Assembly: GCA_002104535.1 (NCBI GenBank)
Contig: NBOG01000002.1
Span: 256,240-320,239 of the forward strand
Direction of reading: 5' to 3'
From: Cognaticolwellia sediminilitoris
Lineage (GTDB): Bacteria; Pseudomonadota; Gammaproteobacteria; Enterobacterales; Alteromonadaceae
Length of the DNA: 64,000 nucleotides
The first letter of the stretch is position 1, and each line of letters starts with the position of its first letter. Of the stretch, positions 27,812 to 46,902 are shown piece after piece. The notes under the pieces were generated by a model that was given only the letters and a program-made list of their open reading frames with translations, made no database searches and was not told the origin of the DNA. The position numbers and the translations under genes are program-made.

Positions 27812-27857
27812 TGCTTCATTAAACGAATTAAGCACCTAAATCATCGTGGAGCAACAA

Positions 27858-28919: not shown

Positions 28920-28945
28920 AAGCCACTGAAAAGTGGCTTTTTTAT
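28920..28945 (+). terminator. Rho-independent terminator after recA
   Basis: An 8-bp stem AAGCCACT / AGTGGCTT with a GAAA loop is followed by a T-rich run. It isolates recA from the surface-protein cluster. Confidence 0.93.
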
Positions 28946-29139: not shown

Positions 29140-30459
29140 GTGAATAGAGTTGTATTGGTTTTTTTCTTTTTGTTATTCACGAGTGCTGCAGTTCAAGCTG
29201 AAACGTTTCGAAACAGCAGTGCATTTACACCGTTAAAACAAAAAATAGCACAGCAACAGAATGTTGATGCGTGGCAATTAGCACTTAAGCTCGAGGCTGA
29301 TTATCTAGGTGATCCTGATTTTGATTTTCTTTACGGCCTTGCTGCACTAAAAGTTCAAGAAAACGAACGTGCTGTTTATGCTTTTGAGCGAGTTGTTGCA
29401 AATAAACCCAATTGGTTAGATGCTCAATATTATTTAGCAAGCGCTTATTACACCATGAAAAATTATCATGCTGCGATTGAAATTACACAGTCGATGGGTG
29501 AGATTAATAATATTTCTGAAAAACTTAAAGTATCAGCCCTAAAACTTAATAGCCTTGCAGTAATAGCTTTAGAGAAACAATCCCTTTTTGTCCAACATTC
29601 AGTTGAAGCGAACGTTGGTTACGACTCAAATGTAAATGCGGGAACTAGCGAAGATAATGTATTCCTGCCATTTCTGAATCAAGATATTATTTTATCAGAT
29701 GAAAGCAAAGAGATCAGTGATTCTTATTTAGCGTTAGGGTATCAACTTAAAGCAAGTAAAACCTTAACACAATCTTCTAAATTAACTTTTTCTGGCGCAA
29801 GTAAATTGCACTTTTTTAGTAATGAATCAGACTACAATCGATTCTTTCTTAATACAAACTTGCAGTATCAAAAAGACTTCGCTGACGTTAGTGGTAGTGT
29901 CGGGGTTAGAGCTGTTCCATTGTGGTTAGATGGCGAATATTATCGTACCCAGTATGGTGCTACAGCAGGATTAAATAAAGCCCTTGATAAGAACTGGCGT
30001 GTTGCAACAGATGTGTTTTTTGGCAAGACCAAAAATGATATTAATCAACTTTTAAGTACAAAAGATACCTCCCTACAAGCGTCTGCCCAATATATTACTC
30101 AACGTTGGCGTCACCTTGTTTCGCTAGCATATTCAACTGAAATAAGTGAGTTTGATGCAAGTCAGCATAATGATAGAAAAACAAATGCTTTCAATTATAT
30201 GATAAACTACGCGCTAGATAGCAATTGGCTTGCAAGTCTAAACATTAGTTATCAACATCAAAATTACCAACATGAACACCCTTTCTTTTTCGTCAAACGC
30301 GTCGATAAAATGTGGATGTTTGGAACCGCTATTCAATACCAAGATACCGAAAGGTGGTCTTACCGATTAAGTGCTAATTTACAAGATAAAGATAGTAACT
30401 TAGCGCTTTTTTCCTATCAACGTGCGGATATTAACTTATCTGCTCGCATGAGCTTTTAG
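29140..30459 (+). CDS. TPR protein with outer-membrane barrel domain
   Basis: A 439-residue secreted protein. Residues 1-20 form a signal peptide ending AVQA. Residues 30-140 contain TPR-like helices (FLYGLAALKVQENERAVYAF). From about residue 150 the sequence turns into alternating strands ending in an aromatic-terminated segment (INLSARMSF), consistent with an outer-membrane barrel. The strand opening GYDSNVN is shared by TPR/barrel proteins of the Slam (DUF560) and PgaA type, so export or assembly of a surface protein is a reasonable inference. The start is GTG 29140 with GGAAGG upstream. It lies nine bases before the FecR gene and heads the six-gene cluster. Confidence 0.7.
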   Translation: MNRVVLVFFFLLFTSAAVQAETFRNSSAFTPLKQKIAQQQNVDAWQLALKLEADYLGDPDFDFLYGLAALKVQENERAVYAFERVVANKPNWLDAQYYLASAYYTMKNYHAAIEITQSMGEINNISEKLKVSALKLNSLAVIALEKQSLFVQHSVEANVGYDSNVNAGTSEDNVFLPFLNQDIILSDESKEISDSYLALGYQLKASKTLTQSSKLTFSGASKLHFFSNESDYNRFFLNTNLQYQKDFADVSGSVGVRAVPLWLDGEYYRTQYGATAGLNKALDKNWRVATDVFFGKTKNDINQLLSTKDTSLQASAQYITQRWRHLVSLAYSTEISEFDASQHNDRKTNAFNYMINYALDSNWLASLNISYQHQNYQHEHPFFFVKRVDKMWMFGTAIQYQDTERWSYRLSANLQDKDSNLALFSYQRADINLSARMSF

Positions 30460-30468
30460 GAGTACTTT

Positions 30469-31677
30469 ATGCAGAGTTCAACGTTTTATTATACCGTGAT
30501 CAAGAGTAGTACAATTAAATTAGTCAGTATTTTATTTATAGTTATAGGTTTACAAAATAGTGCCATTGCAAATGATGTTGCTGGTAAAACTATACTGGCA
30601 AAAGGTAAAGTTTTAGCCTTCGACCAAACGAGTAATGAACAAAGAAAATTGAAGCGACGCTCTTCAATATTTAGTGTTGATAACATTACTACGGGCGATA
30701 AAAGTAAAGCACAATTCAGTATGTCTGATGGTGGTTTGATTACCTTAAAAGAAAACACAGAAATTCTGATCAGAAATTATAAGTTTAACCCAGACGCAGG
30801 TGAAGCATCGGCAACCTTGGAAGTGGTTAGCGGCGGTTTACGCTCAATTAGTGGCTTAATTAAAAAGTCAGGTGGTGATTATCAAGTTAAAACCCCTGTC
30901 GGAAGTATTGGTATTCGTGGCACTCACTTTGCAGTTGAAGTTGTTGGCGAAGATGTATATTTTGCTGTTTATAGCGGAAATATAGATGTGCAATTAAATG
31001 ATCAAAGTACATTGTCATTGGGTAGCACTGAAGATTTTACATTTGCATCAGTAAATGCTCAAGGCAAAGTAACTCGCATGACGCAAGCCCCCGCCAACAT
31101 ATCTTTAGGTTTTTCAGATACCACTGAAAGTGAAGGCGATGACGAAAATTCTGATGAAGCTGATAGTGAGCAAGCGTCGTCAAGTGACGTTGCAGATTCT
31201 GGTGTTAGCCCAACTAATGGACAAGAGTCAACTTATGAAAACTCTGCAGATGCCAGCGTTTATAATGAATCAGAATTGCAGGGAATGAATGGCTCTCCTA
31301 TCGAAGAACTACTTGCTGAGCGCACAGGTACATTAACTTACAACAATGTAACTCAAAGTACAGTTAATTCAAGCGTCGGTGTAGTAAGTGATTTCCAAAT
31401 GAGTATGACAATCGATTTTGATAATGCTTCTGTTCCTGGCGGTACCCTAAGTTTCACTGATAGCCAAGGTGAGTGGTTTGCTACTTATTCAGGCTTAATC
31501 AATATAGATCAACTAAACTTAGGAATAAATTTCGCTTCTCATGGTAATAATCGCGCAGATGGTAATATCTTTGCGGCATTTTCTGATGGTTTAGATTCAA
31601 TTCTAGGTGGCTTTAATTTACATGAGATTAATGACCCGTCAGTTACTGCTGGTGGCTCTTTTAAAATAAAACCATAA
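30469..31677 (+). CDS. FecR-domain secreted protein
   Basis: A 402-residue protein with an N-terminal signal or anchor segment (about 15-35, ending SAIAN). A FecR domain follows (about 45-170), recognised from FSVDNITTGDKSKAQFSMSD, GGLRSISGLI and VKTPVGSIGIRGTHFAVEV. The middle (about 220-270) is acidic and Ser/Glu/Asp-rich, and the C-terminal third is beta-rich. FecR domains of this stand-alone kind occur next to large surface proteins and CHASE2 cyclases and are not anti-sigma factors. It is spaced 9 bases from the barrel gene and 18 from the giant lipoprotein gene, so all three are probably one operon. Confidence 0.85.
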   Translation: MQSSTFYYTVIKSSTIKLVSILFIVIGLQNSAIANDVAGKTILAKGKVLAFDQTSNEQRKLKRRSSIFSVDNITTGDKSKAQFSMSDGGLITLKENTEILIRNYKFNPDAGEASATLEVVSGGLRSISGLIKKSGGDYQVKTPVGSIGIRGTHFAVEVVGEDVYFAVYSGNIDVQLNDQSTLSLGSTEDFTFASVNAQGKVTRMTQAPANISLGFSDTTESEGDDENSDEADSEQASSSDVADSGVSPTNGQESTYENSADASVYNESELQGMNGSPIEELLAERTGTLTYNNVTQSTVNSSVGVVSDFQMSMTIDFDNASVPGGTLSFTDSQGEWFATYSGLINIDQLNLGINFASHGNNRADGNIFAAFSDGLDSILGGFNLHEINDPSVTAGGSFKIKP

Positions 31678-31695
31678 ACTTAGGAATAATAAAAA

Positions 31696-34600
31696 ATGTT
31701 GAGTAGTAGATATATATATTTTATTACAATCTTGAGTTTAACCGCGTGTGGCGGTGGTGAAGCACCTGCTGAAAAAGCAGCTATAACATCCGCAGGTGAA
31801 CCTTCACAGTCAGTAACGTCTCCAACGGTTGATCTCTCAGGTCAATCAGGAACATCGGCTTCAAGCGGCGTGCAAGTCGGAGGCACGACCAGTAACAGTA
31901 ATGCAAACGTCGATGATAAGTTTGCTAATGCCGTTGGAACAATCAGACATATTAGCGCAGAGGAGAACGTTCAAGGTAATTTAACACTAGGTGCGACTGC
32001 TTCTGATGAAGATACATTAACCAAGGTTTCACTGTATTTGCCTAAAGTAGAACGAGCTTTCGTTTTATGTGAAAGTAACTGTCCAGCTAATTTTCGAGCA
32101 ACTATCACAGGTTTCAATCCACAACTGGCTGACGTAGTTGCTGGTCCTTTACGTATAGAACTCATTGTTGAAGATAGTTTAGGTAATAGGGCAGTAGTTG
32201 ATGCCTTAAGTATTAACTGGCAACCCATTCAAATTTCAGCCATTAACGCAAGTCGTGCTGATGGCAATGTCTCAATCTCTTGGTCAGGCAATTCTAGCAT
32301 CCAACGTTACAACGTATATGCTGCAACTCAACACGGTATTACTGCTTTAAACGCATTAGATCTTGACAACGGTATGCAAAGATTAGCCATTAAGGGCACG
32401 TCTTTGACCTTTATCGATGCGGCGCCTAGTAAAGACTATCATTTATTTATTACCGGTATTGATAATGGTGGCGAAAGCGGTAAATCAGCACCATTTATTA
32501 TCCCAAGAACTGTCGGCGCAGTTAATCAACCTCCCGTTGCCAATAATGAAAATTTTCAGGTCAATGAAGATGAATCTATCACGGTTAATGTTCTCGAAAA
32601 TGATCTTGATCCTGAAGGGCAATTACTGCAAATTGAAAGTATTTTACAACAACCCGCTAACGGTTCTGTAAATTATGATGATGCTGGTAATCTGACTTAT
32701 AAAGGTAATTTAAATTTTAACGGCACAGACAGCGTTAGCTATAGAATTTGGGATACAGAGGGCGCGACTGCTGAAGCTACTGTCTTTTTCGAAGTATTAG
32801 CGGTAAATGATGCTCCTATCGCAGTTGACGACACTTATGGTGTTGACCCAAGCGGTAAAATTACTGCAAGTGAAACCGATCTATTAAGCAATGACTCTGA
32901 TATTGATGGCGATACACTGCAAGTTTCGACAACACCGGTTACAGCACCACAACAAGGTGCTGTTGTTATTAACTCAGATGGTAGTTTCTCTTATCAATCA
33001 ACGGGTGTTTTAACGACTTCGGATACTTTTGTTTATCAAGTGTTAGATGGCAACGGCGGAACCGCAAATGCGACAGTAACGATTTTACCTAACGGAAATA
33101 TTTTACCACCTATTGCACGAAACGATAATTATCAAGTTGACGAAGATACCACATTAGTTATTGATAGCATTGACTTAGGGATTTTAGCAAATGATAGCGA
33201 TCCAAATGGTTTAGCGTTTACATTACAAGAAAGCCTTGTTATTGAACCCGCACATGGACAGTTAAATTTATCGCTTGATGGTACTTTTACCTATATACCT
33301 AACAGTAACTTTGCAGGAACTGATCGGTTTCAATATCAAATTAAAAATTCAGCTGACATTGTAGCCCAAGCGTTTGTGATTATTACTGTTTTACCTGTTA
33401 CAGATATTCCAATCGCACAAGATGATAATTATGTAGCTGAAGAAGATGTCACATTAGTTGTCGATGCATCTTTAGGCTTATTAATAAATGATGTTGATTT
33501 TGATAATTTAACATTAACGGTTAATACCACCCCAGTTAGCGCTCCGCAAAAAGGAACGTTAATTTTGGCCCCTGATGGCAGCTTCAGTTATACACCGAAT
33601 GCTGACTTCAATGGTGTTGATAGTTTTACCTACCAAATTAGCAATGAAGCGCAATTGACTGACACAGCCAATGTTAATATCGTCATATCACCTAGTAACG
33701 ACGCACCTACTGTTATAGATGACAGCGTCACGATCAATGAAGATACTACTGCTCTAATCGATGTACTTGCGAATGATAGTGATGTAGATGGCGATGACAT
33801 TTCGCTTAGTTCTGTCACTTCTGAAAATGGCTCTGCATTGATTGTAAATGGCCAAGTTCAAATCGCACCAACGCTTAATTTTTTCGGTCAATATAACGTT
33901 ACTTACACTGCCGAAGATAGTTTTGGCGCAAGCACTAACGGCAACTTAGTTGTCACTGTTTTACCGGTAAATGACGCACCACTTGCAGTGAACGACAGCT
34001 ACAGTTTGCTTGAAGATACAGTACTGAGCGTATTAGTTTCTGATACAAGCCAATTATTAAGTAATGATAGTGATATTGATGGCGATACTTTAACGGTTAA
34101 TACCACACCAGTTTCAAATGTCAGTAACGGCAGCTTAACACTGAGCAGTAATGGTGCATTTGTTTACTCGCCAAGTGTTAACTTTAACGGCACCGACAGC
34201 TTTACTTATCAAGTAAGTGATGGCAATGGTGGCACAGCACAAGCGAGTGTCACTTTAACGGTCAGTTCTCTTAACGATATCCCAGTAGCTTCAGCTGATA
34301 GTTTTACCCTTGATGAAGATAACGTCCTAACAAAATTAGCAAGTGATAGTGACAATTTACTGTCGAATGATATTGATGCTGATGGTGATACCTTAACGGT
34401 TAACACCACACCAATCTCAAATGTCAGTAATGGTAGCTTAACGTTAAATAGCGATGGCTCATTTGTTTACACGCCAAGTGTTAACTTTAACGGTACAGAC
34501 AGTTTTACTTATCAAGTCAGTGATGGCAATGGCGGCACCGCGAATGCGAGTGTCAGCTTAACCATTAATTCTATTAACGATATTCCAGTCGTTGTAGGTG

Positions 34601-37600: not shown

Positions 37601-40600
37601 TTTCTTTAGATGAAGACGTGCCATTAGCCATCACTTTTGTCAGCTTGTTAAGTAACGATAATGATATTGATGGCGATACTTTATCGGTTGATACCAGTGC
37701 AATCCCTACAGCAAGTAAGGGTGTTTTAACCATTGACGGTTCTACATTTCAATATACGCCGACAGCTAACTTAAATGGTACTGATAGCTTTACCTATAAA
37801 ATTGACGATGGCAGTGGCACGTTAGTCGATGGCACAGTCAATTTAACCATTAATGCAATCAATGATGCCCCTGTAGGCGTAGACGATAGTTATACCTTTG
37901 CTGAAGATGTGACCTTAGCTAAACTGGTCAGTGATGGCGATAATCTGTTAGGTAACGACACTGATGTTGAAAGTGACACCTTAACTATTACATTGGATAC
38001 CGATGTAAGTAACGGTACGTTAACATTGGGCTCTGATGGCTCGTTCAGCTATGTACCTGATGCTAACTTTAACGGTGCAGACAGCTTCGTTTATCAAGTA
38101 GATGATGGTAATGGCGGCACAGATACAGCGACCGTTAGCTTAACGATTCAAGCGGTCAATGACGCGCCACTAGCATCTCCACAAACTTTTAGTGTTGTTG
38201 AAAATGGTAATGATGGTGACGTCGTCGGCTCTGTAGTTGCCAGTGATATTGAAGCTGATACTTTGACCTATTCATTAACCGCGGGTGATACAGGACTATT
38301 TCAAATAGACTCTGCCAGCGGTGAAATAACCGTCAAAGGCACCTACCCACTCGATTACGAAACTAATACTCAACATACCGTAACGGTGACTATAGATGAT
38401 GATGGTAGTCCAACGCCAGAATCGACCGATGTGGTTATTACTATTGATGTCACTGACATCCCTGGCGATGCAGTTTTAGGTGAAACTGCAGGTTTTGGTC
38501 GTGCGGCATTGGGCTCATTGGAGCTCACAGGCATTAAAACCCAGCCTCAGCTAAACAAGTCAGTAACTGTTGGTAGTAAAGTTTATTTTATTGGCAGTAT
38601 CGATAATGTCGATAAAGATGTTTATGTCGTGGCCTATAACGACGATAGCACCTTAGATGCTACTTTTGGCACCAATGGTAAACAAACTTTTGATTTTGGT
38701 GATAATGAATACGGCAAAGGTATTGCGGAAATATCGGGCAATTTATACCTTATTTTTGACCGTGATTTTGGCGCTTATTCCGAAGCCTGCTTTTTAAGAG
38801 TTGATGCCACTGGCGCCATAGACACCGGCTTTGCAGACAACGGTTTACGTTGTACAACCGATGAAAAACTCATATCGATTAATGATGCTGTCTACATGCC
38901 TCAACCTATCGTACAAGGGGTGAGTGAGGACTCTGGTGATTGGCTGTCTGCTATTGTTGCTGTAGGTAAAGTACAAGATAATGCTGGTGATGATACAGAT
39001 ACCTTTATCACTCGAATAGATGAAGATGGTAATTTTATAGATTTTACTCCTCTAGATACCGGTGATTCTAAGCATATGAGGGTAGATGTCAGCGCTAGCA
39101 ATTTAGATGATGTAGCGACTACGTTATACAACCCGCATAATGTCGAAATTATGCTGGCCGGTAATGTTGAAACAGGCGCTGACAGCGATATTTTCACTTG
39201 GATAATTAATCCTAAAAATATGGACCTCAATTATGATCGCTTTAATTCTACTCAACCATTAATTATTGATGTTACCGGCAACAATCAAGATGATCAAATG
39301 GGCGCTATCAATGGCAAAAATACCGGAGCGGGTGAGCACACCGCCCACTTAGCCGGTTCAACATTCGTCGCTGGCGAGCAAGATGCATTTATTCTAGAGA
39401 TAGATAGTGACGCTGGTTTAGTTACCGCTTTTGGTACCAATGGCGTGGCGATTTATGATGTTGATAACACAGTAAGTGTTGGCACCAGTGAATTTACTGG
39501 CTACCAATGGGACTATACGAATGATGAAATGTATTTAACCGGTAACATATTTGATGGCAGCAAAGTTAAACCATTTGCTACCCGCATTCTGCCTGCTGAC
39601 GGTGCCGTCGATTCCGTCAATTATGGGATTGGTGGTTATAAAATATTTAACTACGCAGATGGTAATGCTTATGCACTGGGGATGAGCTTAGACAGTGTGC
39701 AAACAATGTGGATACCGGGTTATGTCGAGTCAGGTGCTGATAAAATCATGACAATTAGCTCAGTTGATAATATCGGTGAACCTAATGAGGATCAATTTGA
39801 AAGTGGTAAGAAGAAACTTACTCATTCAAGTACAGCCTCTGACGATATTGTTGCACAAGTTATTCAGATTCAAGATCTTGCTCAACAAGGTAAATATTTA
39901 GTCGCGTCAACGGCAGATAATACCAGTGATAAGCATATTATCTTGACTCGATTTACCAGTGCTGGCTTGTTAGACACCAGTTTTGATACTGATGGTCATA
40001 AACAATTAAAAATTGGCACAAATACAGAAGTTAAAGGGCTATTTGAACTCGCCGATGGTAACTATATTGTTTATGGTAATGTTACAGAGGCTTCAGTTGA
40101 TAATGGCTTTGTAGCACGCATTGATCAAAATGGTGTTTTAGATGCTACTTTTGCCACTGACGGTATATATAACACCGCAGCACTTGGCGCGACCAATATT
40201 CACTTTAACCAAGTAAAAGCAGACAGTGCTGGTAATCTTGTGGCAGTAGGCAATTATGACCTGGGTAGTTTGAGTGCCTTTGTATTGCGCTTAACCTCAG
40301 CAGGAGCACTAGATGCAACCTTTAATACTTTAGATACCCAAGGCTACGTTGTTGGCGCAAATACCGATGATTATTTTGCTTTAGAAATAGATGCAAGTAA
40401 TAACATTTATGCTGGTGGCAATCGCAACACTGGCCGTCAAGATATGTTGTTAGTTAAATATCTGTCAACTGGCTTGGTTGATAGTACATTCAATAGTAAC
40501 ACGGGTGAGTTAGTTGTTGATGTAGCCGGCGGCGATGACAACATCGAGTTTGTTGGCTTCGATAGCAATGATGATTTATACCTTGTTGGTAATGAGCTAG

Positions 40601-41031
40601 ATCCTCCTTTATCACTGACTTTACTTCCACTTACATTCAACTCTGATGATCGTATAGGGGTTGTTAAAACCTCTACTTCAGGTGATCTCATCGCAGGTTT
40701 TGGAAGTAACGGTAAAGCAAGGTTAAGAATGTCTTCGTCTAACTCAGGTATGACCCAAGCAGCTATTGATACCAATGATAATATAGTCGTTGTTGGCTTT
40801 ACTGAGTATATCGGTGAAATGAAACAAATGCTCGGTCGGATAACTCCAACGGGCAGCCTAGATGATGCGTTCGATTTTGACGGTTACTCAAGAGATTTAA
40901 CCTGCTCTAACGATGCACAATTAGAGTCACTGGTATTACTGAATAACAGTTCATTCGTTGTTGCAGGACAATGTTATATCGATGCAACCTATAAAAATGA
41001 TATTGACGTCATCCAGTTCCAACTAAATTAA
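31696..41031 (+). CDS. Giant cadherin-like repeat lipoprotein, 3111 aa
   Basis: This predicted surface adhesin has a lipoprotein signal (LSLTACGGG, Cys near residue 18). Residues 180-270 resemble a fibronectin type III domain. Residues 277-2158 hold 19 tandem cadherin-like (tandem-95 type) repeats of about 95-101 residues. Each has an ED motif after a DD/DS start, DVDGDTLTV, NSDGSFTYTP, FNGTDSFTYQV and a closing NDAP/NDIP/NDLP; the Asp-rich loops suggest calcium binding. A classical cadherin domain follows (about 2159-2255). The last 800 residues contain about nine delta-60-type motifs (LDATFGTNG-like), suggesting a beta-propeller. There is no RTX tail or LPXTG signal, so the lipid anchors it. 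DNA-level repeats are described separately. Confidence 0.9.
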   Translation: MLSSRYIYFITILSLTACGGGEAPAEKAAITSAGEPSQSVTSPTVDLSGQSGTSASSGVQVGGTTSNSNANVDDKFANAVGTIRHISAEENVQGNLTLGATASDEDTLTKVSLYLPKVERAFVLCESNCPANFRATITGFNPQLADVVAGPLRIELIVEDSLGNRAVVDALSINWQPIQISAINASRADGNVSISWSGNSSIQRYNVYAATQHGITALNALDLDNGMQRLAIKGTSLTFIDAAPSKDYHLFITGIDNGGESGKSAPFIIPRTVGAVNQPPVANNENFQVNEDESITVNVLENDLDPEGQLLQIESILQQPANGSVNYDDAGNLTYKGNLNFNGTDSVSYRIWDTEGATAEATVFFEVLAVNDAPIAVDDTYGVDPSGKITASETDLLSNDSDIDGDTLQVSTTPVTAPQQGAVVINSDGSFSYQSTGVLTTSDTFVYQVLDGNGGTANATVTILPNGNILPPIARNDNYQVDEDTTLVIDSIDLGILANDSDPNGLAFTLQESLVIEPAHGQLNLSLDGTFTYIPNSNFAGTDRFQYQIKNSADIVAQAFVIITVLPVTDIPIAQDDNYVAEEDVTLVVDASLGLLINDVDFDNLTLTVNTTPVSAPQKGTLILAPDGSFSYTPNADFNGVDSFTYQISNEAQLTDTANVNIVISPSNDAPTVIDDSVTINEDTTALIDVLANDSDVDGDDISLSSVTSENGSALIVNGQVQIAPTLNFFGQYNVTYTAEDSFGASTNGNLVVTVLPVNDAPLAVNDSYSLLEDTVLSVLVSDTSQLLSNDSDIDGDTLTVNTTPVSNVSNGSLTLSSNGAFVYSPSVNFNGTDSFTYQVSDGNGGTAQASVTLTVSSLNDIPVASADSFTLDEDNVLTKLASDSDNLLSNDIDADGDTLTVNTTPISNVSNGSLTLNSDGSFVYTPSVNFNGTDSFTYQVSDGNGGTANASVSLTINSINDIPVVVGESYSIDEDTTLTKLVTDLDHLLINDSDVDGDTLTVNTTPVSNVSNGSLTLSSNGAFVYSPSVNFNGTDSFTYQVSDGNGGTAQASVTLTVNSLNDIPVASADSYIIDEDIVLTKLVSDSDNLLSNDIDADGDTLTVNTTPISNVSNGSLTLNSDGSFVYTPSVNFNGTDSFTYQVSDGNGGTANASVSLTINSINDIPVLADDDYSVDEDAVLSVLVSDSNQLLSNDSDVDGDTLTVNTTPVSNVSNGTLTLSSNGAFVYTPSVNFNGTDSFTYQVSDGNGGTAQASVTLTVNSINDIPVPSADNFSVDEDNVLTKLVSDSDNLLDNDNDADGDTLTVNTTPISNVSNGSLTLNSDGSFVYTPSVNFNGTDGFTYQVSDGNGGTANANVSITVDAINDLPVVSGESYGFNEDNTLTKLVSDSDNLLSNASDVDGDTLSVNTTAVTDVNDGTLTLNSDGSFIYVPDADFNGTDSFTYEVQDGNGGKVNGNVSLTINALNDAPIAVNDSYSFNEDFTWVRFVTDGDQLLSNDSDVDGDTLTVETTPITDVNDGTLTLNSDGSFTYVPDANFNGTDSFTYRINDGNGETAQATANLTIHAINDAPVVTGESYTFNEDITLTKLVSDSDNLLSNASDVDGDTLTVNTTAVTDVNDGTLTLNSDGSFIYVPDANFNGTDSFTYQVLDGEGGTVNGNVSLTINAVNDLPTTVADAVSLDEDVPLAITFASLLANDSDIDGDTLSIDTSAIPTATKGVLTISGSSFIYTPTANLNGTDSFTYKVDDGSGTLVNGTVNLTINAINDLPTTGTDTFSLDEDDPLTITFASLLANDNDIDGDTLSVDTSAIPTATKGVLTISGSSFIYTPTANLNGTDTFTYKIDDGSGTLVNGTVNLTIDAINDLPTTGTDTFSLDEDVPLAITFADLLANDNDVDADTLTVDTSAIPSASKGVLTISGSSFIYTPSANLNGTDTFTYKIDDGSGTLINGTVNLTINAINDLPTTVTDTFSLDEDVPLAITFVSLLSNDNDIDGDTLSVDTSAIPTASKGVLTIDGSTFQYTPTANLNGTDSFTYKIDDGSGTLVDGTVNLTINAINDAPVGVDDSYTFAEDVTLAKLVSDGDNLLGNDTDVESDTLTITLDTDVSNGTLTLGSDGSFSYVPDANFNGADSFVYQVDDGNGGTDTATVSLTIQAVNDAPLASPQTFSVVENGNDGDVVGSVVASDIEADTLTYSLTAGDTGLFQIDSASGEITVKGTYPLDYETNTQHTVTVTIDDDGSPTPESTDVVITIDVTDIPGDAVLGETAGFGRAALGSLELTGIKTQPQLNKSVTVGSKVYFIGSIDNVDKDVYVVAYNDDSTLDATFGTNGKQTFDFGDNEYGKGIAEISGNLYLIFDRDFGAYSEACFLRVDATGAIDTGFADNGLRCTTDEKLISINDAVYMPQPIVQGVSEDSGDWLSAIVAVGKVQDNAGDDTDTFITRIDEDGNFIDFTPLDTGDSKHMRVDVSASNLDDVATTLYNPHNVEIMLAGNVETGADSDIFTWIINPKNMDLNYDRFNSTQPLIIDVTGNNQDDQMGAINGKNTGAGEHTAHLAGSTFVAGEQDAFILEIDSDAGLVTAFGTNGVAIYDVDNTVSVGTSEFTGYQWDYTNDEMYLTGNIFDGSKVKPFATRILPADGAVDSVNYGIGGYKIFNYADGNAYALGMSLDSVQTMWIPGYVESGADKIMTISSVDNIGEPNEDQFESGKKKLTHSSTASDDIVAQVIQIQDLAQQGKYLVASTADNTSDKHIILTRFTSAGLLDTSFDTDGHKQLKIGTNTEVKGLFELADGNYIVYGNVTEASVDNGFVARIDQNGVLDATFATDGIYNTAALGATNIHFNQVKADSAGNLVAVGNYDLGSLSAFVLRLTSAGALDATFNTLDTQGYVVGANTDDYFALEIDASNNIYAGGNRNTGRQDMLLVKYLSTGLVDSTFNSNTGELVVDVAGGDDNIEFVGFDSNDDLYLVGNELDPPLSLTLLPLTFNSDDRIGVVKTSTSGDLIAGFGSNGKARLRMSSSNSGMTQAAIDTNDNIVVVGFTEYIGEMKQMLGRITPTGSLDDAFDFDGYSRDLTCSNDAQLESLVLLNNSSFVVAGQCYIDATYKNDIDVIQFQLN
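33982..35799 (+). repeat. 606-bp higher-order repeat, three copies
   Basis: Cadherin-like units 6 to 11 of the giant gene alternate between two types (GSLTLSSNG and GSLTLNSDG). Matching segments recur exactly 606 bp apart (GTTTCAAATG at 34111 and 34717, then 35323; ATCTC at 34414, 35020 and 35626). Three 606-bp copies, each a pair of 303-bp units, fill the span. Long stretches are identical at DNA level, so duplication or gene conversion is recent. Confidence 0.9.
36709..37872 (+). repeat. 291-bp tandem repeat, four copies
   Basis: Units 15 to 18 of the giant gene form a second array of four 97-residue units that differ in type from the 101-residue units (SLDEDVPLAITF and IPTATKGVLTIS motifs). 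Spacing is exactly 291 bp, and neighbouring units share long identical stretches. This indicates a separate amplification event. Confidence 0.88.
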
Positions 41032-41052
41032 TTTACAAATAAAAGTGACTTT

Positions 41053-41892
41053 ATGAAAGTAGAATTCTTCGGTGTCCGTGGCTCAAGCCCGACACCGGGT
41101 AAACATACCGTACTATTTGGTGGTAATACATCATGTGTCTACGTTTCTTTAGAAGATGGCCATGATGTTATTTTAGATGCAGGTACTGGTATTATCGCCT
41201 TAGGTGATCGTTTAGTAAAAAACCATGCTGACATTAATATCCTACTGACCCATAATCATTGGGATCACATCCAAGGTTTTCCATTTTTTAGACCTATTTA
41301 TCAAGATAATAGGAAAATCACCATAGTACCTGGTGCGGTCGAATATGACGATAAAGATGCCATTTTGGCGCAAATGTCAGGTTCTACTCATCCGGTTAAA
41401 TATCAACAATTAACCGCTGACATTAATGTTTTAACAGACCAAGCATTAAATGACACTTTTGAAATTCCAGGCTTTAATGTTCGTACACAACTGTTAAATC
41501 ACCCAGATGGCGGAAGTGCCTATTGTTTATCGGCTGAAGGTAAAAAATTAGCTTTCGTAACTGATAATGAATTAAGCTCACCGAATAAAATGAATACTAC
41601 TTGGCAACAATGGCTCGATTTTATTGCTGGCGCAGATATTCTTATTCACGATGCTCAGTATATCGAAGAAGATTTACCCCTAAAGTTAGGTTGGGGGCAT
41701 AGTAAACTATCTGAAGTAGCAAGATTAGCGTGTGAAGCAAAAGTGAAAAGCTTATATATTGTTAGTCATGATCCTGCGCGTACCGATGATGAACTGTTAA
41801 GCCAAGAAGCGAAGCTACAAGAAGAATATCAAGGTAGACTTAATATATATTGTGCTCGCGAAGGCACAGTTGTCGATCTAGCTTCGACCTAA
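41053..41892 (+). CDS. MBL-fold metallo-hydrolase
   Basis: A 279-residue metallo-beta-lactamase-fold hydrolase without a signal peptide. The metal ligands are complete: H67, H69, D71 and H72 in THNHWDHIQG, then H150, D171 and H239. The overall form (FGVRGSSPTPG start, FGGNTSCV) resembles RNase Z and PhnP-type phosphodiesterases. It lies 21 bases after the giant lipoprotein and four bases before an adenylate cyclase gene, so a cyclic nucleotide or another phosphodiester is a plausible substrate, but this is inference. Nuclease or other hydrolase activity remains possible. Confidence 0.85.
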   Translation: MKVEFFGVRGSSPTPGKHTVLFGGNTSCVYVSLEDGHDVILDAGTGIIALGDRLVKNHADINILLTHNHWDHIQGFPFFRPIYQDNRKITIVPGAVEYDDKDAILAQMSGSTHPVKYQQLTADINVLTDQALNDTFEIPGFNVRTQLLNHPDGGSAYCLSAEGKKLAFVTDNELSSPNKMNTTWQQWLDFIAGADILIHDAQYIEEDLPLKLGWGHSKLSEVARLACEAKVKSLYIVSHDPARTDDELLSQEAKLQEEYQGRLNIYCAREGTVVDLAST

Positions 41893-41896
41893 TGAA

Positions 41897-44113
41897 ATGA
41901 TAAAACGGTTAACATCTAAAAGTTTTCTTGTCGGGTTGGCCATCACTTTAATGGTGATTGGGCTAAACTATATCAGCGTAGATAATGTACAAAAGCTATT
42001 GCAACGGGTTGAGGGCATTTTATACGATGCTCGATTGTTAGCCACGTTGCCAAGTGAACCTCGACACTTTGAAGAACAAGTGGTCATCATTGATATTGAT
42101 GAAAAAAGTATGCGAGAGCAAGGGCGACACCCTTGGAGCAGAAGTAAAGTTAGTGATCTCGTACAAAAACTGATGGATGCAGGGGTCGTTGTTGTTGCAT
42201 TCGATATATTCTTCGCCGAACCAGAACGTAACCCCGTTGAAGTCGTACTCTCAAGAAATACAAACCTGTCTGAACAATCACGTGCGAAAATTGCAAGCCT
42301 TACCGACTCGGTCGACTTTGATAAAGAATTTTCCGAAACCTTAAGTGAGTCAGAAGTTGTATTAGGCTTTCTTTTTGATGATAGCGCGAAGACCGCCGGA
42401 CAATTACCCGCAAGTGTTATTGATTGGCAAAATAGCAGCGGGCAATTATCAGAAATAGCCAGTTTTGAAAACGTGCTTGGCAATATTGCTACTTTGCAAT
42501 CTTCAGCAACAGGCGCAGGATTTATTAATTCGGTACCTGAAAGTGATGGTTTTATCAGAAAAGCGTCATTAGTACTTAATTATCAAGGCAAGTTATACCC
42601 ATCATTAGCGCTTGAAGCTGCGAGGGTATACACCTTAGCAGATAGTATCCAAGCAACGAGCAAAATATCAGGCAATACCAGTTGGTTACAAGGTTTAAGT
42701 TTTGGTAATCACTTCATTCCGACTAATGAGAAAGGTCAGATTCTTATTCCTTATAAAGGCCGCGAGCGAAGTTTTCCCTATATTTCTGCTACTGATGTTT
42801 TAAATGAACGTGTTAACCCAGAACTATTAGATGGCGCCGTTGCATTTATTGGTACATCAGCGGTTGGCTTAGCTGATTTAAGAACAACTTCAGTAGGGGT
42901 ACAATATCCGGGAGTAGAAGTGCATGCCAATGTATTTGAAGGGCTTATTCACCCTGAGATATTACCAATTGAACTAGATTTTACCTTAGCGTTAATATTC
43001 AGCTTATTACTGTTAACCGGTATTTTTTTGGCTATTTTAATGGCGAAACAAGGCCCTATTAAAATATTAACCATTAGTCTGGTTAGCGTTGTACTACATG
43101 TTTGTTTTAATTGGTATTGCTGGTGGGTGTTGAAAATTAGCTTACCTCTATTTCAAATATTGTTACTTATTGCACTTTTGACGGCTTATTACGGTTCAGT
43201 AGGGTTTTTGTCAGCCAACGTCAATCGAAAGAAAATAAAAAGCATGTTTGATCAATATGTACCACCTGCATATATTGAAAAATTAATTCAGTCAGATAAA
43301 GGCGCAGAGTTAAAAACAGAGCGCCGTGAAATGTCAGTATTATTTGCTGATATAAGAGACTTTACTACTTTGTCTGAACAATTTAGTCCTGACGAACTAA
43401 GTGATTTTTTGAAAGAATATTTAACTGAAGCCACCAGTATTATTTTTGATAATGCAGGCACCATTGATAAATATGTTGGTGATATGGTTATGGCTATTTG
43501 GAATGCCCCGCTAGAAGATGAAAACCACGCGCTAAATGCAGTCATTAGTGCGCTAAACTTAGTGACATTAACCCATAAGCTCAGCGAACGGTTTGTCGAG
43601 AAAAACTGGCCGAAAATTCAAATAGGTATTGGTATAAGTACCGGTGATATGGTCGTAGGTGACATGGGGTCAACTTACAGAAAAGCCTATACTGTTTTGG
43701 GCGATGCGGTTAATTTAGGCTCGAGAATTGAAGCGTTAACCAAATATTATGGTGTCGATATTTTAATTTCAAGTAATACATACCATGAAATTATTAAGCA
43801 GGGTGTAACTTGTATTAAAATTGATAGAATAAAAGTTAAAGGTAAATTTAACTTTGTTGAGGTCTATCAACCGATTGGTTTTGACGCTGAATTAAGTGAT
43901 GAAGTTAAAGCAGATGTCATGTTGCATGAAATGGCTATGGAATCTTATCTTTGTGGAAATTGGCAAGAAGCTAAAGAACAGTTTATGCTGTTAAAACAAA
44001 GTGCTAATTTATCAATAACAATTTATAGTATATTGATTGAAAGAATCGCTAACCTTATTGGACATGTAGACGCTAAGAGTTGGGATGGTATTTATACCCA
44101 TGAGACTAAGTAA
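41897..44113 (+). CDS. CHASE2-domain adenylate cyclase
   Basis: A 738-residue membrane-bound class III cyclase. Residues 10-26 form the first membrane span, 40-345 an extracytoplasmic CHASE2 sensor domain, and about 360-440 three further spans. The C-terminal cyclase domain (about 475-660) has both metal-binding aspartates, D485 (FADIRDFT) and D529 (YVGDM). The adenine-selecting K525 and T599 and the transition-state N606 and R610 are also present, so it should make cAMP. What CHASE2 senses is unknown. The gene follows the MBL gene by four bases and precedes the GAF/HD-GYP gene by six, which suggests one signalling operon. Confidence 0.92.
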   Translation: MIKRLTSKSFLVGLAITLMVIGLNYISVDNVQKLLQRVEGILYDARLLATLPSEPRHFEEQVVIIDIDEKSMREQGRHPWSRSKVSDLVQKLMDAGVVVVAFDIFFAEPERNPVEVVLSRNTNLSEQSRAKIASLTDSVDFDKEFSETLSESEVVLGFLFDDSAKTAGQLPASVIDWQNSSGQLSEIASFENVLGNIATLQSSATGAGFINSVPESDGFIRKASLVLNYQGKLYPSLALEAARVYTLADSIQATSKISGNTSWLQGLSFGNHFIPTNEKGQILIPYKGRERSFPYISATDVLNERVNPELLDGAVAFIGTSAVGLADLRTTSVGVQYPGVEVHANVFEGLIHPEILPIELDFTLALIFSLLLLTGIFLAILMAKQGPIKILTISLVSVVLHVCFNWYCWWVLKISLPLFQILLLIALLTAYYGSVGFLSANVNRKKIKSMFDQYVPPAYIEKLIQSDKGAELKTERREMSVLFADIRDFTTLSEQFSPDELSDFLKEYLTEATSIIFDNAGTIDKYVGDMVMAIWNAPLEDENHALNAVISALNLVTLTHKLSERFVEKNWPKIQIGIGISTGDMVVGDMGSTYRKAYTVLGDAVNLGSRIEALTKYYGVDILISSNTYHEIIKQGVTCIKIDRIKVKGKFNFVEVYQPIGFDAELSDEVKADVMLHEMAMESYLCGNWQEAKEQFMLLKQSANLSITIYSILIERIANLIGHVDAKSWDGIYTHETK

Positions 44114-44119
44114 CTTATT

Positions 44120-45733
44120 ATGATAGATAATTCATCACCGCAATCAGCTTTTGAACACTTACTCCATATTAGTATTCAATTAAGTAAAGAAGTTAATACT
44201 GATTTGCTAATGGAAAAAATATTATTTGCTGCCGTTGAAGTTTCCAATGCAGATGCAGGGTCGATTTATTTAGTTAATACCGAAAAAGAATTAGAGTTTC
44301 GTACTATTTATAATAAAAGTATGAATTTACATCTTGGTGGTAGTTCACCTTCGCCAATTAGTTTCCCTGGCGTGCCTTTATTTATCGAAAACGAACCCAA
44401 TCGCTCTGCAATTGTTGCTCATGCTGCCAATACCGGTGAAGTGATTAATATAGATGACGTTTATGCGGCTTTACCTTTTGATTTCAGCGCCGCTAGAAAA
44501 ATGGACAGCAAGACGGGTTATCGAACAAAATCCATGTTGACATTTCCATTGCAAGATCACACCGGCGATATCATCGGTGTGATCCAGTTAATTAATGCCA
44601 TGGACGGTGAAGAAATCATCAGCTTCTCTGAGCAAGTAGAACAACAAATATTATCTTTTGCTGCTTTAGGTGCTATTGCCTTAACTAATAGAGCACTTAT
44701 TTCTAATATGGAGCAATTGTTTGAGTCTTTTGCCAAAACGATTGCGGGAGCGATTGATGCTAAATCAGCGCATACCGGCGGTCACTGTAAGCGTGTACCA
44801 GAATTAACCTTGATGATTGCTGATGCCGTAAGTGCTTATGATGAAGGCCCGTTAGCATCATTTAAACTCTCGAAACAAGAACGTCATCAACTCAGTATTG
44901 CTGGCTGGTTGCATGATTGTGGCAAAATCGCCACACCCGATCATGTTATGGAAAAGTCGAGAAAATTAGAAACCATATTTGATAGAATTCATTATGTAAC
45001 GGCGAAGTTAGAAATTGTAAAACGTGATATTGATCTTAAATATCAAGAACAAATGATCACCGCTTTAAAAGCTAATAAAGCGGTTCGTGTTGAACAGCTT
45101 GAGCGAGAAAGGTTCTTGGCACAAAAACAGTTAAAATTAGATACCGCATTCTTGCAGAAAGTGAATGTTGGCGGTGAATTTTTAACTGATGCCCAAGAAT
45201 TGAATATTCAATCAATTGCTGACAGATACCAAATTTTTATTGAAAATGTGCCACAGCCGCTATTATCTCAAGATGAAATTAAGAACTTAAGTATTAAACG
45301 CGGTACTTTGAATAATGAAGAAAGAAATATTATTAAAAAACATATGGATGTGACCTTAGATATACTTGAGGCATTACCATTTCCAAAACATCTTTCTAAC
45401 GTAGCAGAGTATGCTTTAGGGCATCATGAAACGATGGACGGTAAAGGTTATCCTAGAGGCTTAACTAAAGAGCAGATGTCTGTGCCAGCAAGATTGATGG
45501 CATTAGCCGATATATTTGAAGCGTTATCTGCTGCTGACCGACCATATAAAAGTGCAAAACCGGTTAGTGAGTGCTTGAAAATCATGAGTAATATGGTGAA
45601 AAATAACCATTTAGACGGTGATTTATTTACTATTTTTGTCCGCTCTAAAGTTTACGAGCAATATATTCATACTTTTGCTGATCCAAGACAACTTGATGCA
45701 ATTGATGTTGAAGCACTGCTAGATTTTCAGTAA
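44120..45733 (+). CDS. GAF and HD-GYP domain protein
   Basis: A 537-residue cytoplasmic protein. Residues 20-190 are a GAF domain (small-molecule or cyclic-nucleotide sensing). Residues 205-490 are an HD-GYP domain: HD at 265-266 with GK (HDCGK), and HHETMDGKGYPRG at 435-447, the full GYP signature. HD-GYP enzymes hydrolyse c-di-GMP. A charged, probably coiled insert of about 120 residues (about 285-400) separates the two catalytic halves. GAF domains can bind cAMP, so this protein could link the cyclase next door to c-di-GMP turnover; that is inference. It is the last gene of the cluster. Confidence 0.9.
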   Translation: MIDNSSPQSAFEHLLHISIQLSKEVNTDLLMEKILFAAVEVSNADAGSIYLVNTEKELEFRTIYNKSMNLHLGGSSPSPISFPGVPLFIENEPNRSAIVAHAANTGEVINIDDVYAALPFDFSAARKMDSKTGYRTKSMLTFPLQDHTGDIIGVIQLINAMDGEEIISFSEQVEQQILSFAALGAIALTNRALISNMEQLFESFAKTIAGAIDAKSAHTGGHCKRVPELTLMIADAVSAYDEGPLASFKLSKQERHQLSIAGWLHDCGKIATPDHVMEKSRKLETIFDRIHYVTAKLEIVKRDIDLKYQEQMITALKANKAVRVEQLERERFLAQKQLKLDTAFLQKVNVGGEFLTDAQELNIQSIADRYQIFIENVPQPLLSQDEIKNLSIKRGTLNNEERNIIKKHMDVTLDILEALPFPKHLSNVAEYALGHHETMDGKGYPRGLTKEQMSVPARLMALADIFEALSAADRPYKSAKPVSECLKIMSNMVKNNHLDGDLFTIFVRSKVYEQYIHTFADPRQLDAIDVEALLDFQ

Positions 45734-45801
45734 GCCGAAATACTACTTTTACCATCAAACTATAAACACTTCTTTTCATCAATAATTTATGAGGCTTGTC
45801 C

Positions 45802-46902
45802 TTGCTCAATAATCACTCCCATTTTGCCCTATTAGCACATTACCTTAAGTCCAACGAAAAGCTTAATTGGGTTCTTGCTACCATCGTCAACAAAGAAGGT
45901 TCAAGCTATCGTTCGCCAGGCGCTATAATGCTGGTAAATGATCTTGGGCAATCGTATGGCTTAGTCAGCGGTGGCTGTTTAGAAGCTAATATCGTTTTAC
46001 ACGCGAAAAAAGTATTTGAAAGCCAGCAAGCAAACTATGTTGAATATGACATGCGAGAAGAAGACGGCTACGCGGCAGAATTAGGCGTAGGCTGTAAAGG
46101 TAAAATTGGAGTTTTACTTCAATTTTTGACACCCAAGCATCAAGTTATTTTGGCCAATGTTTATCAACGTATGCATGATGGTCAAGCGAGTTATTTAGCG
46201 CATACCTATCTTACCGAGCCATCTGAAAAGCACCTGTTGAGCGATTTAAGCGCATATAATGATAAAGGCAAGCTGATAGCCACAACGTCTCAGCAACAGT
46301 TAAATCTCACCGATGATGCGTTCTCAGGAGTAACCACGAATGAAAGAACGCATTGGGTGTGTTCGTTAGCAAAGACGAGCTGTTCGATTACTAAAATTTC
46401 GGCCCCGATAAATTTATGGGTGTTTGGTGGCGGCTCAGATGCTGCGCCATTAGTTTCAATGGCTGCTCAAATGGGATGGCGAGTAACGATTGTTGATCAT
46501 CGCTCTAGTTATGCCCGCAGTAGCAGTTTTAAACACGCAGAGAATATTCTTAAAGTTCACCCAAAAGACTTTGTTCAGTTTGAATTATTTAGTCAAATAG
46601 ATGCGGCAGTATTAATGACCCATAACTTGAATTTAGATGCTGCATGGTTAACGTTATTACATGAAAAAAATGTCGGACAATTTATTGGCTTACTCGGCCC
46701 ACTTGAGCGCCGTGGCAATGTTGAAAACTTGAGTAATATTACCGATGAAAACTGGCTATCCCAGCGGGTTAACGGCCCTGTAGGTTTAGATATTGGTGGA
46801 GACTTACCAGAGTCTATTGCCTTGTCGATTTTAGCGCAGTGCCATAGTGTTTTGCATAATCGAAATGGTGCTCCTTTGTCAGGTAAGTTTATTAATAGTT
46901 GA
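45802..46902 (+). CDS. XdhC/CoxF-family protein
   Basis: A 366-residue XdhC-type protein. Family members insert or sulfurate the molybdenum cofactor of xanthine dehydrogenase-like enzymes. The N-terminal part carries SYRSPGAIMLV and SGGCLEANI (CxxE), plus GVGCKG. The C-terminal part has a Rossmann-like GGGSDAAPLV and FIGLLGPLERR. The start appears to be TTG 45802, with GAGG seven bases upstream. No xdhA/xdhB or other molybdenum enzyme lies next to it, so its client must be elsewhere. Confidence 0.85.
   Translation: MLNNHSHFALLAHYLKSNEKLNWVLATIVNKEGSSYRSPGAIMLVNDLGQSYGLVSGGCLEANIVLHAKKVFESQQANYVEYDMREEDGYAAELGVGCKGKIGVLLQFLTPKHQVILANVYQRMHDGQASYLAHTYLTEPSEKHLLSDLSAYNDKGKLIATTSQQQLNLTDDAFSGVTTNERTHWVCSLAKTSCSITKISAPINLWVFGGGSDAAPLVSMAAQMGWRVTIVDHRSSYARSSSFKHAENILKVHPKDFVQFELFSQIDAAVLMTHNLNLDAAWLTLLHEKNVGQFIGLLGPLERRGNVENLSNITDENWLSQRVNGPVGLDIGGDLPESIALSILAQCHSVLHNRNGAPLSGKFINS

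What the first reader, a model, noticed from the sequence alone, without database searches (positions are those of the whole stretch)
29140..45733. Six-gene surface-adhesin and cyclic-nucleotide signalling cluster
A TPR/barrel protein, a FecR-domain protein, a 3111-aa calcium-type repeat lipoprotein, an MBL hydrolase, a CHASE2 adenylate cyclase and a GAF/HD-GYP protein lie on one strand. Gaps are 4 to 21 bases. Hypothesis: the barrel and FecR proteins export or display the adhesin, CHASE2 senses surface state and makes cAMP, the MBL enzyme degrades or processes a signal, and the GAF/HD-GYP protein converts it to c-di-GMP control of adhesion.
Basis: partly seen in the sequence, partly recalled or inferred. 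Interest (0 to 1): 0.7.

Follow-up and report, generated by a model that had tools for sequence, protein, structure and literature searches.

The report
Secretion-linked cAMP envelope signalling cluster
Six neighbouring genes in a bacterium form one inherited unit that appears to link an outer-membrane protein exporter and a giant surface protein to cyclic-AMP signalling inside the cell, a pairing that could let bacteria sense the state of their own surface.

Summary
The six genes are real, in the stated order, with gaps of 4 to 21 bases, and behave as a unit. Eight of 16 other genomes of the genus carry them (two cut by contig ends); in the other eight, recA is followed directly by xdhC, an empty site. 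All six occur in 12 of 80 named loci found through the cyclase. The first gene looks like a Slam / type 11 secretion (T11SS) protein: TPR domain plus a predicted 14-stranded barrel. The FecR protein ends in a predicted TbpB-like barrel, the T11SS cargo signal. In 100 loci, barrel-tailed FecR always came with the TPR-barrel gene (32 of 32); FecR without that tail came with it in 1 of 10. So the barrel more likely exports or docks the FecR protein than the giant lipoprotein. The cyclase has adenylate-cyclase residues, the MBL enzyme the signature of atypical class-II cAMP phosphodiesterases, and a second cluster in the same genome ends in a cyclic-nucleotide-binding MscS-type channel. FecR genes beside CHASE2 cyclases are known (Campylobacterota); the T11SS-like pair wired to them is, in my searches, not described. 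The mechanism is inferred, untested.

The parts
29140..30459 (+). Slam/DUF560-like outer-membrane protein: N-terminal TPR helices (30-146) and predicted 14-stranded beta-barrel (149-438)
   Evidence: PF04575 37 bits vs cut-off 22; AlphaFold model, mean pLDDT 91.3, 14 long strands; Foldseek nearest BcsC, FadL, PelB, OmpG
30469..31677 (+). FecR-domain protein (FecR 71-172) with C-terminal TbpB-like barrel (about 288-401), putative T11SS cargo; signal peptide without lipobox (my reading of the sequence)
   Evidence: PF04773 60.8 bits; model, C-terminal domain pLDDT 83-97 per ten-residue block; Foldseek TbpB 3hol E 9.2e-4, NHBA C-terminal domain 6cuj probability 1.00; TbpB_B_D Pfam hits in 3 of 20 aligned family members, one over its cut-off, the window protein not among them
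31696..41031 (+). giant 3111-aa predicted lipoprotein, 20 tandem-95/cadherin-like repeats, C-terminal delta-60 repeats
   Evidence: lipobox LTAC at 15-18; a lipobox is also seen in most relatives whose N-terminus was in the sequence, L060 being an exception
41053..41892 (+). MBL-fold hydrolase with THNHWDH motif, candidate cAMP phosphodiesterase (atypical class II, Rv1339/CpdA kind)
   Evidence: PF12706 7.9e-13; NF041851 over nearly the full length but 42.2 bits vs cut-off 400; [TS]HxHxDH in 45 of 45 MBL genes adjacent to the cyclase
41897..44113 (+). CHASE2 class III adenylate cyclase
   Evidence: PF05226 188.6 bits, PF00211 71.9 bits; D485, D529, K525, D603, N606, R610 invariant in 11 of 11 aligned sequences
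44120..45733 (+). GAF + HD-GYP protein, candidate c-di-GMP phosphodiesterase whose GAF resembles GAFs of cyclic-nucleotide enzymes
   Evidence: HD_5 139.3 bits; HHExxDGxGYP in 41 of 42 and HDxGK in 42 of 42 sequences, window included; nearest solved GAFs PDE5, PDE2A, adenylate cyclase 1ykd
28920..28939 (+). terminator-like hairpin with T run between recA and the cluster
27846..28892 (+). recA, left flank of the site (not part of the module)
   Evidence: recA-xdhC empty sites in 8 of 8
45796..46902 (+). xdhC-like gene, right flank of the site (not part of the module)

Best explanation
An envelope-spanning signalling module. The TPR-barrel protein is a T11SS-type outer-membrane protein whose cargo is the FecR protein, recognised through its C-terminal TbpB-like barrel. 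The FecR domain is the signalling part: depending on whether the FecR protein is docked at or moved through the outer-membrane barrel (a state perhaps set by the giant surface lipoprotein and what it touches), the periplasmic CHASE2 domain of the inner-membrane cyclase is switched and cAMP is made. The MBL enzyme removes cAMP. The GAF/HD-GYP protein is the local output, lowering c-di-GMP; in the second cluster of the same genome the output is a cyclic-nucleotide-binding MscS-type channel. Shown here by sequence and prediction: gene unit, domain content, predicted fold of the FecR tail, its association with the TPR-barrel gene, catalytic residues, exchange of the output gene. Inferred: cargo recognition, FecR-CHASE2 contact, direction of signalling, substrate of the MBL enzyme, role of the giant protein.
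For: Unit present or absent between recA and xdhC: 8 of 8 empty sites, xdhC next in 9 of 9 carriers (window), recA upstream in the 6 carriers whose left flank could be seen. All six in 12 of 80 named loci; SlipAM+FecR+cyclase in 21 of 80. Barrel-tailed FecR with SlipAM 32 of 32; FecR without tail 1 of 10, the one being L070 whose FecR and tail fall in different frames. Inside the genus, G009 and G014 hold a further CHASE2-type cyclase beside a FecR gene without tail and without SlipAM (L048, L049). Model of the TPR-barrel protein has 14 strands after about 146 residues of helices, as papers give for Slam/DUF560 (PMC7857515, PMC8406197, passages; 16 strands for the PgaA kind). FecR tail matches TbpB/NHBA folds and, in relatives, TbpB_B_D. 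The same three kinds of gene in Alphaproteobacteria: Paracoccus aminophilus pAMI5 and, more weakly, Shinella. cAMP: residues; MBL with [TS]HxHxDH next to the cyclase in 33 of 80 named loci, 14 upstream and 19 downstream; second cluster ends in MscS + cNMP_binding. Precedents: S. meliloti NsrA/CyaK (PMC7529298, passages), Campylobacterota cluster of CHASE2 cyclase, PDE, FecR and TPR genes (PMC9239204, section 9), FecR + CHASE2 kinase operon (PMC5192318, passages).
Against: No experiment. The 32-of-32 count is not corrected for relatedness, many rows are Alteromonadales, and the tail profile was built from proteins I picked partly by eye. The window FecR protein does not reach the TbpB_B_D profile; in Foldseek only 1 of 1178 matches has E <= 0.001, TM over the whole chain is low, and nitrobindin and lipocalin barrels follow closely. 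Only 4 of 20 TPR-barrel sequences hit PF04575 at E <= 0.01, window included, and the window's TPR part misses TPR_Slam (12.5 vs 35.2 bits). No CRP-site excess. If the FecR protein were fully secreted, contact with CHASE2 would be hard to explain. The GAF motif of cNMP binders is incomplete (my reading). Fifty-eight of 100 loci showed no FecR hit with my profile, some because the contig is cut.
Confidence: 0.45

Rival explanations
1. The barrel exports or flips the giant lipoprotein; the FecR protein is an accessory that keeps it in place (its FecR domain weakly resembles the retention module of LapA-type adhesins), and the cyclase, MBL and HD-GYP genes regulate its display.
For: Giant is a predicted lipoprotein near a Slam-like gene. 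Weak similarity of the FecR domain to the LapA retention module (NF033682, 22.5 bits vs cut-off 50) and to the solved antifreeze-protein chain 5ix9 (E 0.069). Tandem-95 repeats present in 16 of the 21 SlipAM+FecR+cyclase named loci.
Against: The cargo-type barrel is on FecR, not on the giant. SlipAM and barrel-tailed FecR stand without a tandem-95 gene seen in L066, L075, L079 and L114 (L075 is a short contig).
Confidence: 0.25
2. Ordinary FecR/CHASE2 cyclase signalling: the barrel and FecR proteins are a plain receptor pair, the tail only anchors FecR at the barrel, nothing is secreted, and the giant protein is a passenger.
For: FecR + CHASE2 gene pairs are described without T11SS (PMC9239204 section 9, PMC5192318 passages); S. 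meliloti NsrA is an outer-membrane barrel protein needed for CyaK signalling (PMC7529298, passages). Nine FecR loci here lack both tail and SlipAM.
Against: Tail and 14-strand TPR barrel both resemble T11SS partners and occur together.
Confidence: 0.22
3. The TPR-barrel protein exports a polysaccharide (BcsC/PelB/PgaA kind) under c-di-GMP control.
For: Best Foldseek hits of the whole model include BcsC (ranks 1, 2) and PelB (rank 4).
Against: 14 strands predicted rather than 16; Pfam SlipAM over cut-off; no polysaccharide synthase among the six genes.
Confidence: 0.05

Closest known systems
NsrA-CyaK cAMP signalling of Sinorhizobium meliloti (PMC7529298, passages seen)
   Same: Outer-membrane beta-barrel protein required for signalling by an inner-membrane CHASE2 adenylate cyclase.
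   Different: There one large barrel protein; here a TPR-barrel protein plus a separate barrel-tailed FecR protein, a giant lipoprotein, an MBL enzyme and HD-GYP. That NsrA has a FecR domain is my recollection, not tested.
Campylobacterota cluster of CHASE2 cyclase, PDE, FecR-domain outer-membrane protein and TPR protein (PMC9239204, section 9 seen in full)
   Same: Four matching gene kinds in one cluster, proposed there as one pathway.
   Different: No Slam, cargo barrel, giant lipoprotein or HD-GYP is mentioned in that section; its sequences were not compared here, so its TPR protein could prove to be the same kind.
Slam / DUF560 type 11 secretion systems with TbpBBD cargo, hemophilin kind (PMC8406197, PMC12282271, PMC7857515, passages seen)
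   Same: TPR domain + 14-strand barrel beside a cargo with one C-terminal eight-strand barrel and a non-lipidated signal peptide.
   Different: Cargo effector domain is FecR and the neighbours are cyclic-nucleotide genes; find in two main texts gave 0 for FecR and for adenylate cyclase.
Rv1339 / CpdA (C. glutamicum) atypical class-II phosphodiesterases (PMC9293780, passages seen)
   Same: PF12706, [T/S]HXHXDH signature, cAMP context.
   Different: Score far below the NCBIfam cut-off (42.2 vs 400 bits); that NF041851 is the Rv1339 family is my assumption; activity untested.
FecR + CHASE2 histidine kinase biofilm operon of Burkholderia / P. aeruginosa (PMC5192318, passages seen)
   Same: FecR protein outside the cytoplasm paired with a CHASE2 receptor.
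   Different: Kinase output, LysM-FecR protein, no barrel in the passages seen.

Membership tests
Slam / DUF560 T11SS outer-membrane protein | PF04575 barrel domain over gathering score | tested here: met
   37 vs 22 bits; 4 of 20 aligned sequences at E <= 0.01, window included
Slam / DUF560 T11SS outer-membrane protein | N-terminal TPR domain of about 140 aa | tested here: met
   helices 30-146 in the model, generic TPR models; the specific TPR_Slam model is not reached by the window and matched by 10 of 20 sequences at E <= 0.01
Slam / DUF560 T11SS outer-membrane protein | 14-stranded barrel | tested here: met
   14 long strands in a predicted model, mean pLDDT 91.3
Slam / DUF560 T11SS outer-membrane protein | moves a cargo across the outer membrane | not testable with these tools
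   -
TbpBBD-type T11SS cargo (FecR protein) | C-terminal eight-stranded barrel of TbpB type | tested here: inconclusive
   predicted domain of eight long strands plus a short one, Foldseek TbpB, NHBA, HpuA but also lipocalin-like barrels; Pfam TbpB_B_D over cut-off only in relative L114, not in the window
TbpBBD-type T11SS cargo (FecR protein) | gene beside a T11SS-type outer-membrane protein gene | tested here: met
   32 of 32 loci with barrel-tailed FecR hold SlipAM
class III adenylate cyclase | two metal Asp, Lys/Asp purine pair, Asn/Arg transition-state residues (roles recalled) | tested here: met
   invariant in 11 of 11
atypical class-II cAMP phosphodiesterase | [T/S]HXHXDH motif in a PF12706 protein | tested here: met
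   THNHWDH
atypical class-II cAMP phosphodiesterase | NCBIfam NF041851 equivalog cut-off | tested here: not met
   42.2 vs 400 bits; not filed as that equivalog
HD-GYP c-di-GMP phosphodiesterase | HHExxDGxGYP and HDxGK (motifs recalled) | tested here: met
   HHETMDGKGYP, HDCGK
NsrA-CyaK type signalling | outer-membrane barrel required for CHASE2 cyclase activation | not testable with these tools
   -

The most novel reading that the evidence does not exclude
A type 11 secretion pair has been turned into a sensor: the export or docking state of a FecR cargo at its own outer-membrane translocon, set by a giant surface lipoprotein, is read by a CHASE2 cyclase and reported as cAMP. This would be secretion-coupled second-messenger signalling across both membranes.
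Probability: 0.3. Interest if true: 0.8.

Novelty: new variant of a known kind. Interest (0 to 1): 0.62.

Why it matters
A 2016 paper states that what CHASE2 domains recognise is not known (PMC5192318, passage); since then one protein signal has been proposed for the NsrA/CyaK system (PMC7529298, passages). A genetic unit that pairs a CHASE2 cyclase with a T11SS-type translocon and a FecR cargo suggests a concrete partner and a concrete physical event to test. It would also add signalling to the verified uses of T11SS (adhesins, haemophores, metal-binding proteins: PMC12282271, start of abstract), and gives a candidate route by which the state of a giant surface protein could reach cAMP and c-di-GMP pools.

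Tried and rejected
CRP-site search over the window: 21 matches with up to 2 mismatches against 29.7 expected; no excess, none between recA and the first gene except one that overlaps the recA end. Promoter scan no better than shuffles. Solved-structure search by sequence with the TPR-barrel profile matched only TPR stretches (profile positions 42-151) in the 60 of 91 rows shown; with the FecR profile one weak hit. The first neighbour map by greedy ORFs missed SlipAM at L079, and the blast map at L051; six-frame search found both. NsrA itself was sought through plasmid records and not reached; its FecR domain stays a recollection. The original NsrA paper is not held. FecR matches in 70 of the 80 named genomes were used only to see that FecR genes are present: 20 of 20 and 48 of 50 genomes, 1 to 8 matches where found; adjacency was counted. 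Ten of the 80 were in neither call (L053, L098, L100, L108, L111, L113, L118, L126, L128, L132). The class-wide CHASE2 survey (154 of 274 genomes) was not followed into neighbourhoods. Polysaccharide exporter idea ranked low on strand number and absence of a synthase gene.

Rows dropped: alignment A2 (20 sequences) left out FecR proteins without a tail (L069, L080, L082, L087, L088, L100) and the broken L070; A3 (20) left out the truncated L059 and the then undetected L079. Window-based profiles under-count distant loci. The 100 loci are L033-L132; the window is not among them, and L033, L034, L041, L042 are cut or end before SlipAM and FecR and so count among the 58 without FecR.

Full report
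Observation. The window holds the six ORFs at the given coordinates, all on the + strand, gaps 9, 18, 21, 4 and 6 bases. recA lies just before (27846-28892), an xdhC-like gene just after (45796-46902). The window lies at G000:C12:256240-320239 of a 3.84-Mb genome.

A unit with sharp borders. A full-length ortholog of the cyclase (73-85% identity) is found in 8 of 16 other genomes of the genus. The gene order is the same in the six whose locus is complete (L035-L040); two (L034, L041) are cut by contig ends inside the giant gene and show giant-MBL-cyclase-HD-GYP; all eight have xdhC next. In the other 8 genomes no relative of the FecR protein is found at E <= 0.001 (G006 is only 66% complete) and recA is followed directly by xdhC, 130 to 689 bases apart. 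On the left side, recA is the direct neighbour in the window, L038 and L040; in G008, G005 and G009 (L035, L036, L039) recA is also there, but about 11 kb upstream with other genes between; in L034, L037 and L041 the flank is not in the contig. So the site is recA-xdhC in all six carriers whose left flank could be seen, with further insertions in three.

Beyond the genus. In the same family G035 and G028 have all six; G019, G020 and G031 have SlipAM-FecR-giant-cyclase without a detected MBL gene. With profiles started from the window proteins and a six-frame search, all six are seen in 12 of 80 (Pseudoalteromonas, Rheinheimera, Marinifaba, Alteromonas sp. a30, Thalassomonas); SlipAM+FecR+cyclase in 21 of 80; these plus tandem-95 repeats in 16 of 80. 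SlipAM + FecR + cyclase is thus kept most widely among these; giant, MBL and HD-GYP are present in various combinations.

The TPR-barrel protein. The model (20 sequences, mean pLDDT 91.3) shows helices to residue 146 and 14 long strands. Papers give Slam as TPRs plus a predicted 14-stranded barrel (PMC7857515, passage), the DUF560 protein NilB a TPR domain of about 140 aa, and the PgaA kind 16 strands (PMC8406197, passages). Foldseek places BcsC, FadL, PelB and OmpG near the top; no Slam structure appeared among the 50 rows shown.

The FecR protein. The model has a low-confidence linker (214-275) and a C-terminal domain with pLDDT 83 to 97 per ten-residue block and eight long strands plus a short one. 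Foldseek finds TbpB (3hol, E 9.2e-4, the only match with E <= 0.001), the NHBA C-terminal domain (6cuj, probability 1.00, TM 0.51 on the target) and a TbpB C-lobe (5kkx, probability 1.00, TM 0.36 on the target); nitrobindin and lipocalin barrels follow with similar E-values. In sequence, 3 of 20 family members hit Pfam TbpB_B_D at E <= 0.1: L114 27.5 bits over the cut-off of 26, L073 and L075 below it. The window protein does not hit it. T11SS cargo in the papers are an N-terminal effector domain plus a C-terminal eight-stranded barrel, lipidated or soluble (PMC12282271, PMC8406197, passages). Here the effector would be a FecR domain, and the signal peptide has no lipobox (my reading).

Association test. 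A profile of the tail was run on 100 loci, L033-L132. FecR with tail and SlipAM in the locus: 32. FecR with tail, no SlipAM: 0. FecR without tail but SlipAM: 1 (L070, where FecR and the tail fall in different frames). FecR without tail, no SlipAM: 9. No FecR found: 58, none with SlipAM, one (L094, a 5-kb contig) with a tail hit. Fisher p 2.2e-8 without correction for relatedness. Among the window's own proteins the tail profile hits only FecR (1.1e-49; giant E 4.6). Loci far from the Alteromonadales rows with the pair include L073 (Cocleimonas MAG), L079 (Thiogranum MAG), L075 and L114 (Gammaproteobacteria MAGs), there on the strand opposite to the cyclase. In Alphaproteobacteria, Paracoccus aminophilus pAMI5 has a TPR protein, a FecR protein with a TbpB_B_D match of 22.1 bits (cut-off 26) and a CHASE2 cyclase in a row; Shinella has the same order with an FHBP_C match of 19.4 bits (cut-off 28.1). 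My TPR-barrel profile hits both TPR proteins (E 1.6e-20 and 4.5e-21); my tail profile hits neither FecR protein at E <= 0.01. Loci of Ensifer sp. PDNC004, Ruegeria, Rhizobium tropici and S. meliloti pSymB have FecR near a CHASE2-type cyclase with no tail found; Ensifer's short TPR gene gives a weak TPR-barrel hit (4.8e-4).

Cyclic nucleotides. Residues expected of an adenylate cyclase are invariant in 11 of 11 (roles recalled); the best solved match is the cyclase CyaB, 3r5g. The MBL enzyme has THNHWDH; the motif [T/S]HXHXDH is given as the mark of the Rv1339/CpdA class of phosphodiesterases (PMC9293780, passage). It is in 45 of 45 MBL genes within 200 bases of the cyclase on its strand; 33 of these are in the 80 named loci, 14 upstream of the cyclase and 19 downstream, the 19 all betaproteobacterial by record title. 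Two different arrangements argue for a functional tie. The match to the NCBIfam phosphodiesterase model is weak (42.2 vs 400 bits).

Outputs differ. The genome has a second set, seen as SlipAM-FecR-giant running off one end of contig C29 and giant-MBL-cyclase starting at one end of C20; that they are one cluster is inferred from G004, where it is one piece of contig C29 (L133, L042). Its FecR also has the tail (E about 3e-22). After its cyclase stands, in place of HD-GYP, a 508-aa protein with an MscS channel and a cyclic-nucleotide-binding domain (L033). The HD-GYP protein of the window keeps its motifs; in the 42 sequences examined, window included, 41 and 42 do. Its GAF domain is nearest to GAFs of PDE5, PDE2A and an adenylate cyclase, though the NKFDE motif of cNMP-binding GAFs (recalled) is incomplete. 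In G020, G031, Paraglaciecola hydrolytica and Alteromonas facilis the HD-GYP gene lies on the other strand.

Prior work. Three papers hold both words CHASE2 and FecR. PMC9239204 (section 9) describes the four-gene kind in Campylobacterota and takes it as one pathway; PMC7529298 (passages) describes NsrA/CyaK; PMC5192318 (passages) the kinase version. I found no paper that ties T11SS to this: FecR with DUF560, 0 papers; type 11 secretion with cyclic AMP, 0; FecR domain with adenylate cyclase and adhesin, 0; two T11SS papers have no FecR and no adenylate cyclase in the main text. The library is open-licence PMC only, so absence is weak.

Verdict. The system is a new variant of FecR/CHASE2 cyclase signalling. 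Mechanism confidence 0.45.

Noticed in passing
L035 6209-12300; L037 2661-9338; L039 7526-14222 (- strand): The giant gene reads as two ORFs in three of the six complete clusters of other genus genomes; frames differ in L035 and L039 and agree in L037. Could be assembly error in repeats, decay or switching.
   Followed up: partly
L133 3315-15129 (G004:C29): A row of genes with cytochrome c3/c7/c554 matches, an LVIVD-repeat protein and an HbpS-like protein lies directly before the second cluster.
   Followed up: no
L144 753-7770; L146 10062-16892: In Ensifer sp. PDNC004 and Shinella the FecR/CHASE2-cyclase genes stand beside NHLP-type bacteriocin export genes and a cyclic-nucleotide-binding protein.
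   Followed up: no
window 30469-31677 (FecR domain): Weak similarity of the FecR domain to the retention module of LapA-type adhesins (NF033682, 22.5 bits vs 50) and to solved chain 5ix9, an antifreeze protein (E 0.069); also to Lsa33 and LipL45 models below cut-off.
   Followed up: no
window 41897-44113, C-terminus of the cyclase: A W-x-G...K ending (WDGxYTHxxK-like) closes all 11 aligned cyclases, W, G and the final K invariant; function unknown to me.
   Followed up: no
L066 6514 onward (Gayadomonas joobiniege): SlipAM, FecR, MBL, cyclase and HD-GYP without a giant gene between FecR and MBL.
   Followed up: partly
L048 11411-14429; L049 10864-13879: A further CHASE2-type cyclase with a short FecR gene, no SlipAM and no tail, in two genomes of the genus (G009, G014) that also carry the main cluster.
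   Followed up: partly
G008, G005, G009 upstream of the cluster (L149-L151): About 11 kb of other genes lie between recA and the cluster in three genomes, so the recA-xdhC interval takes up more than one insert.
   Followed up: partly
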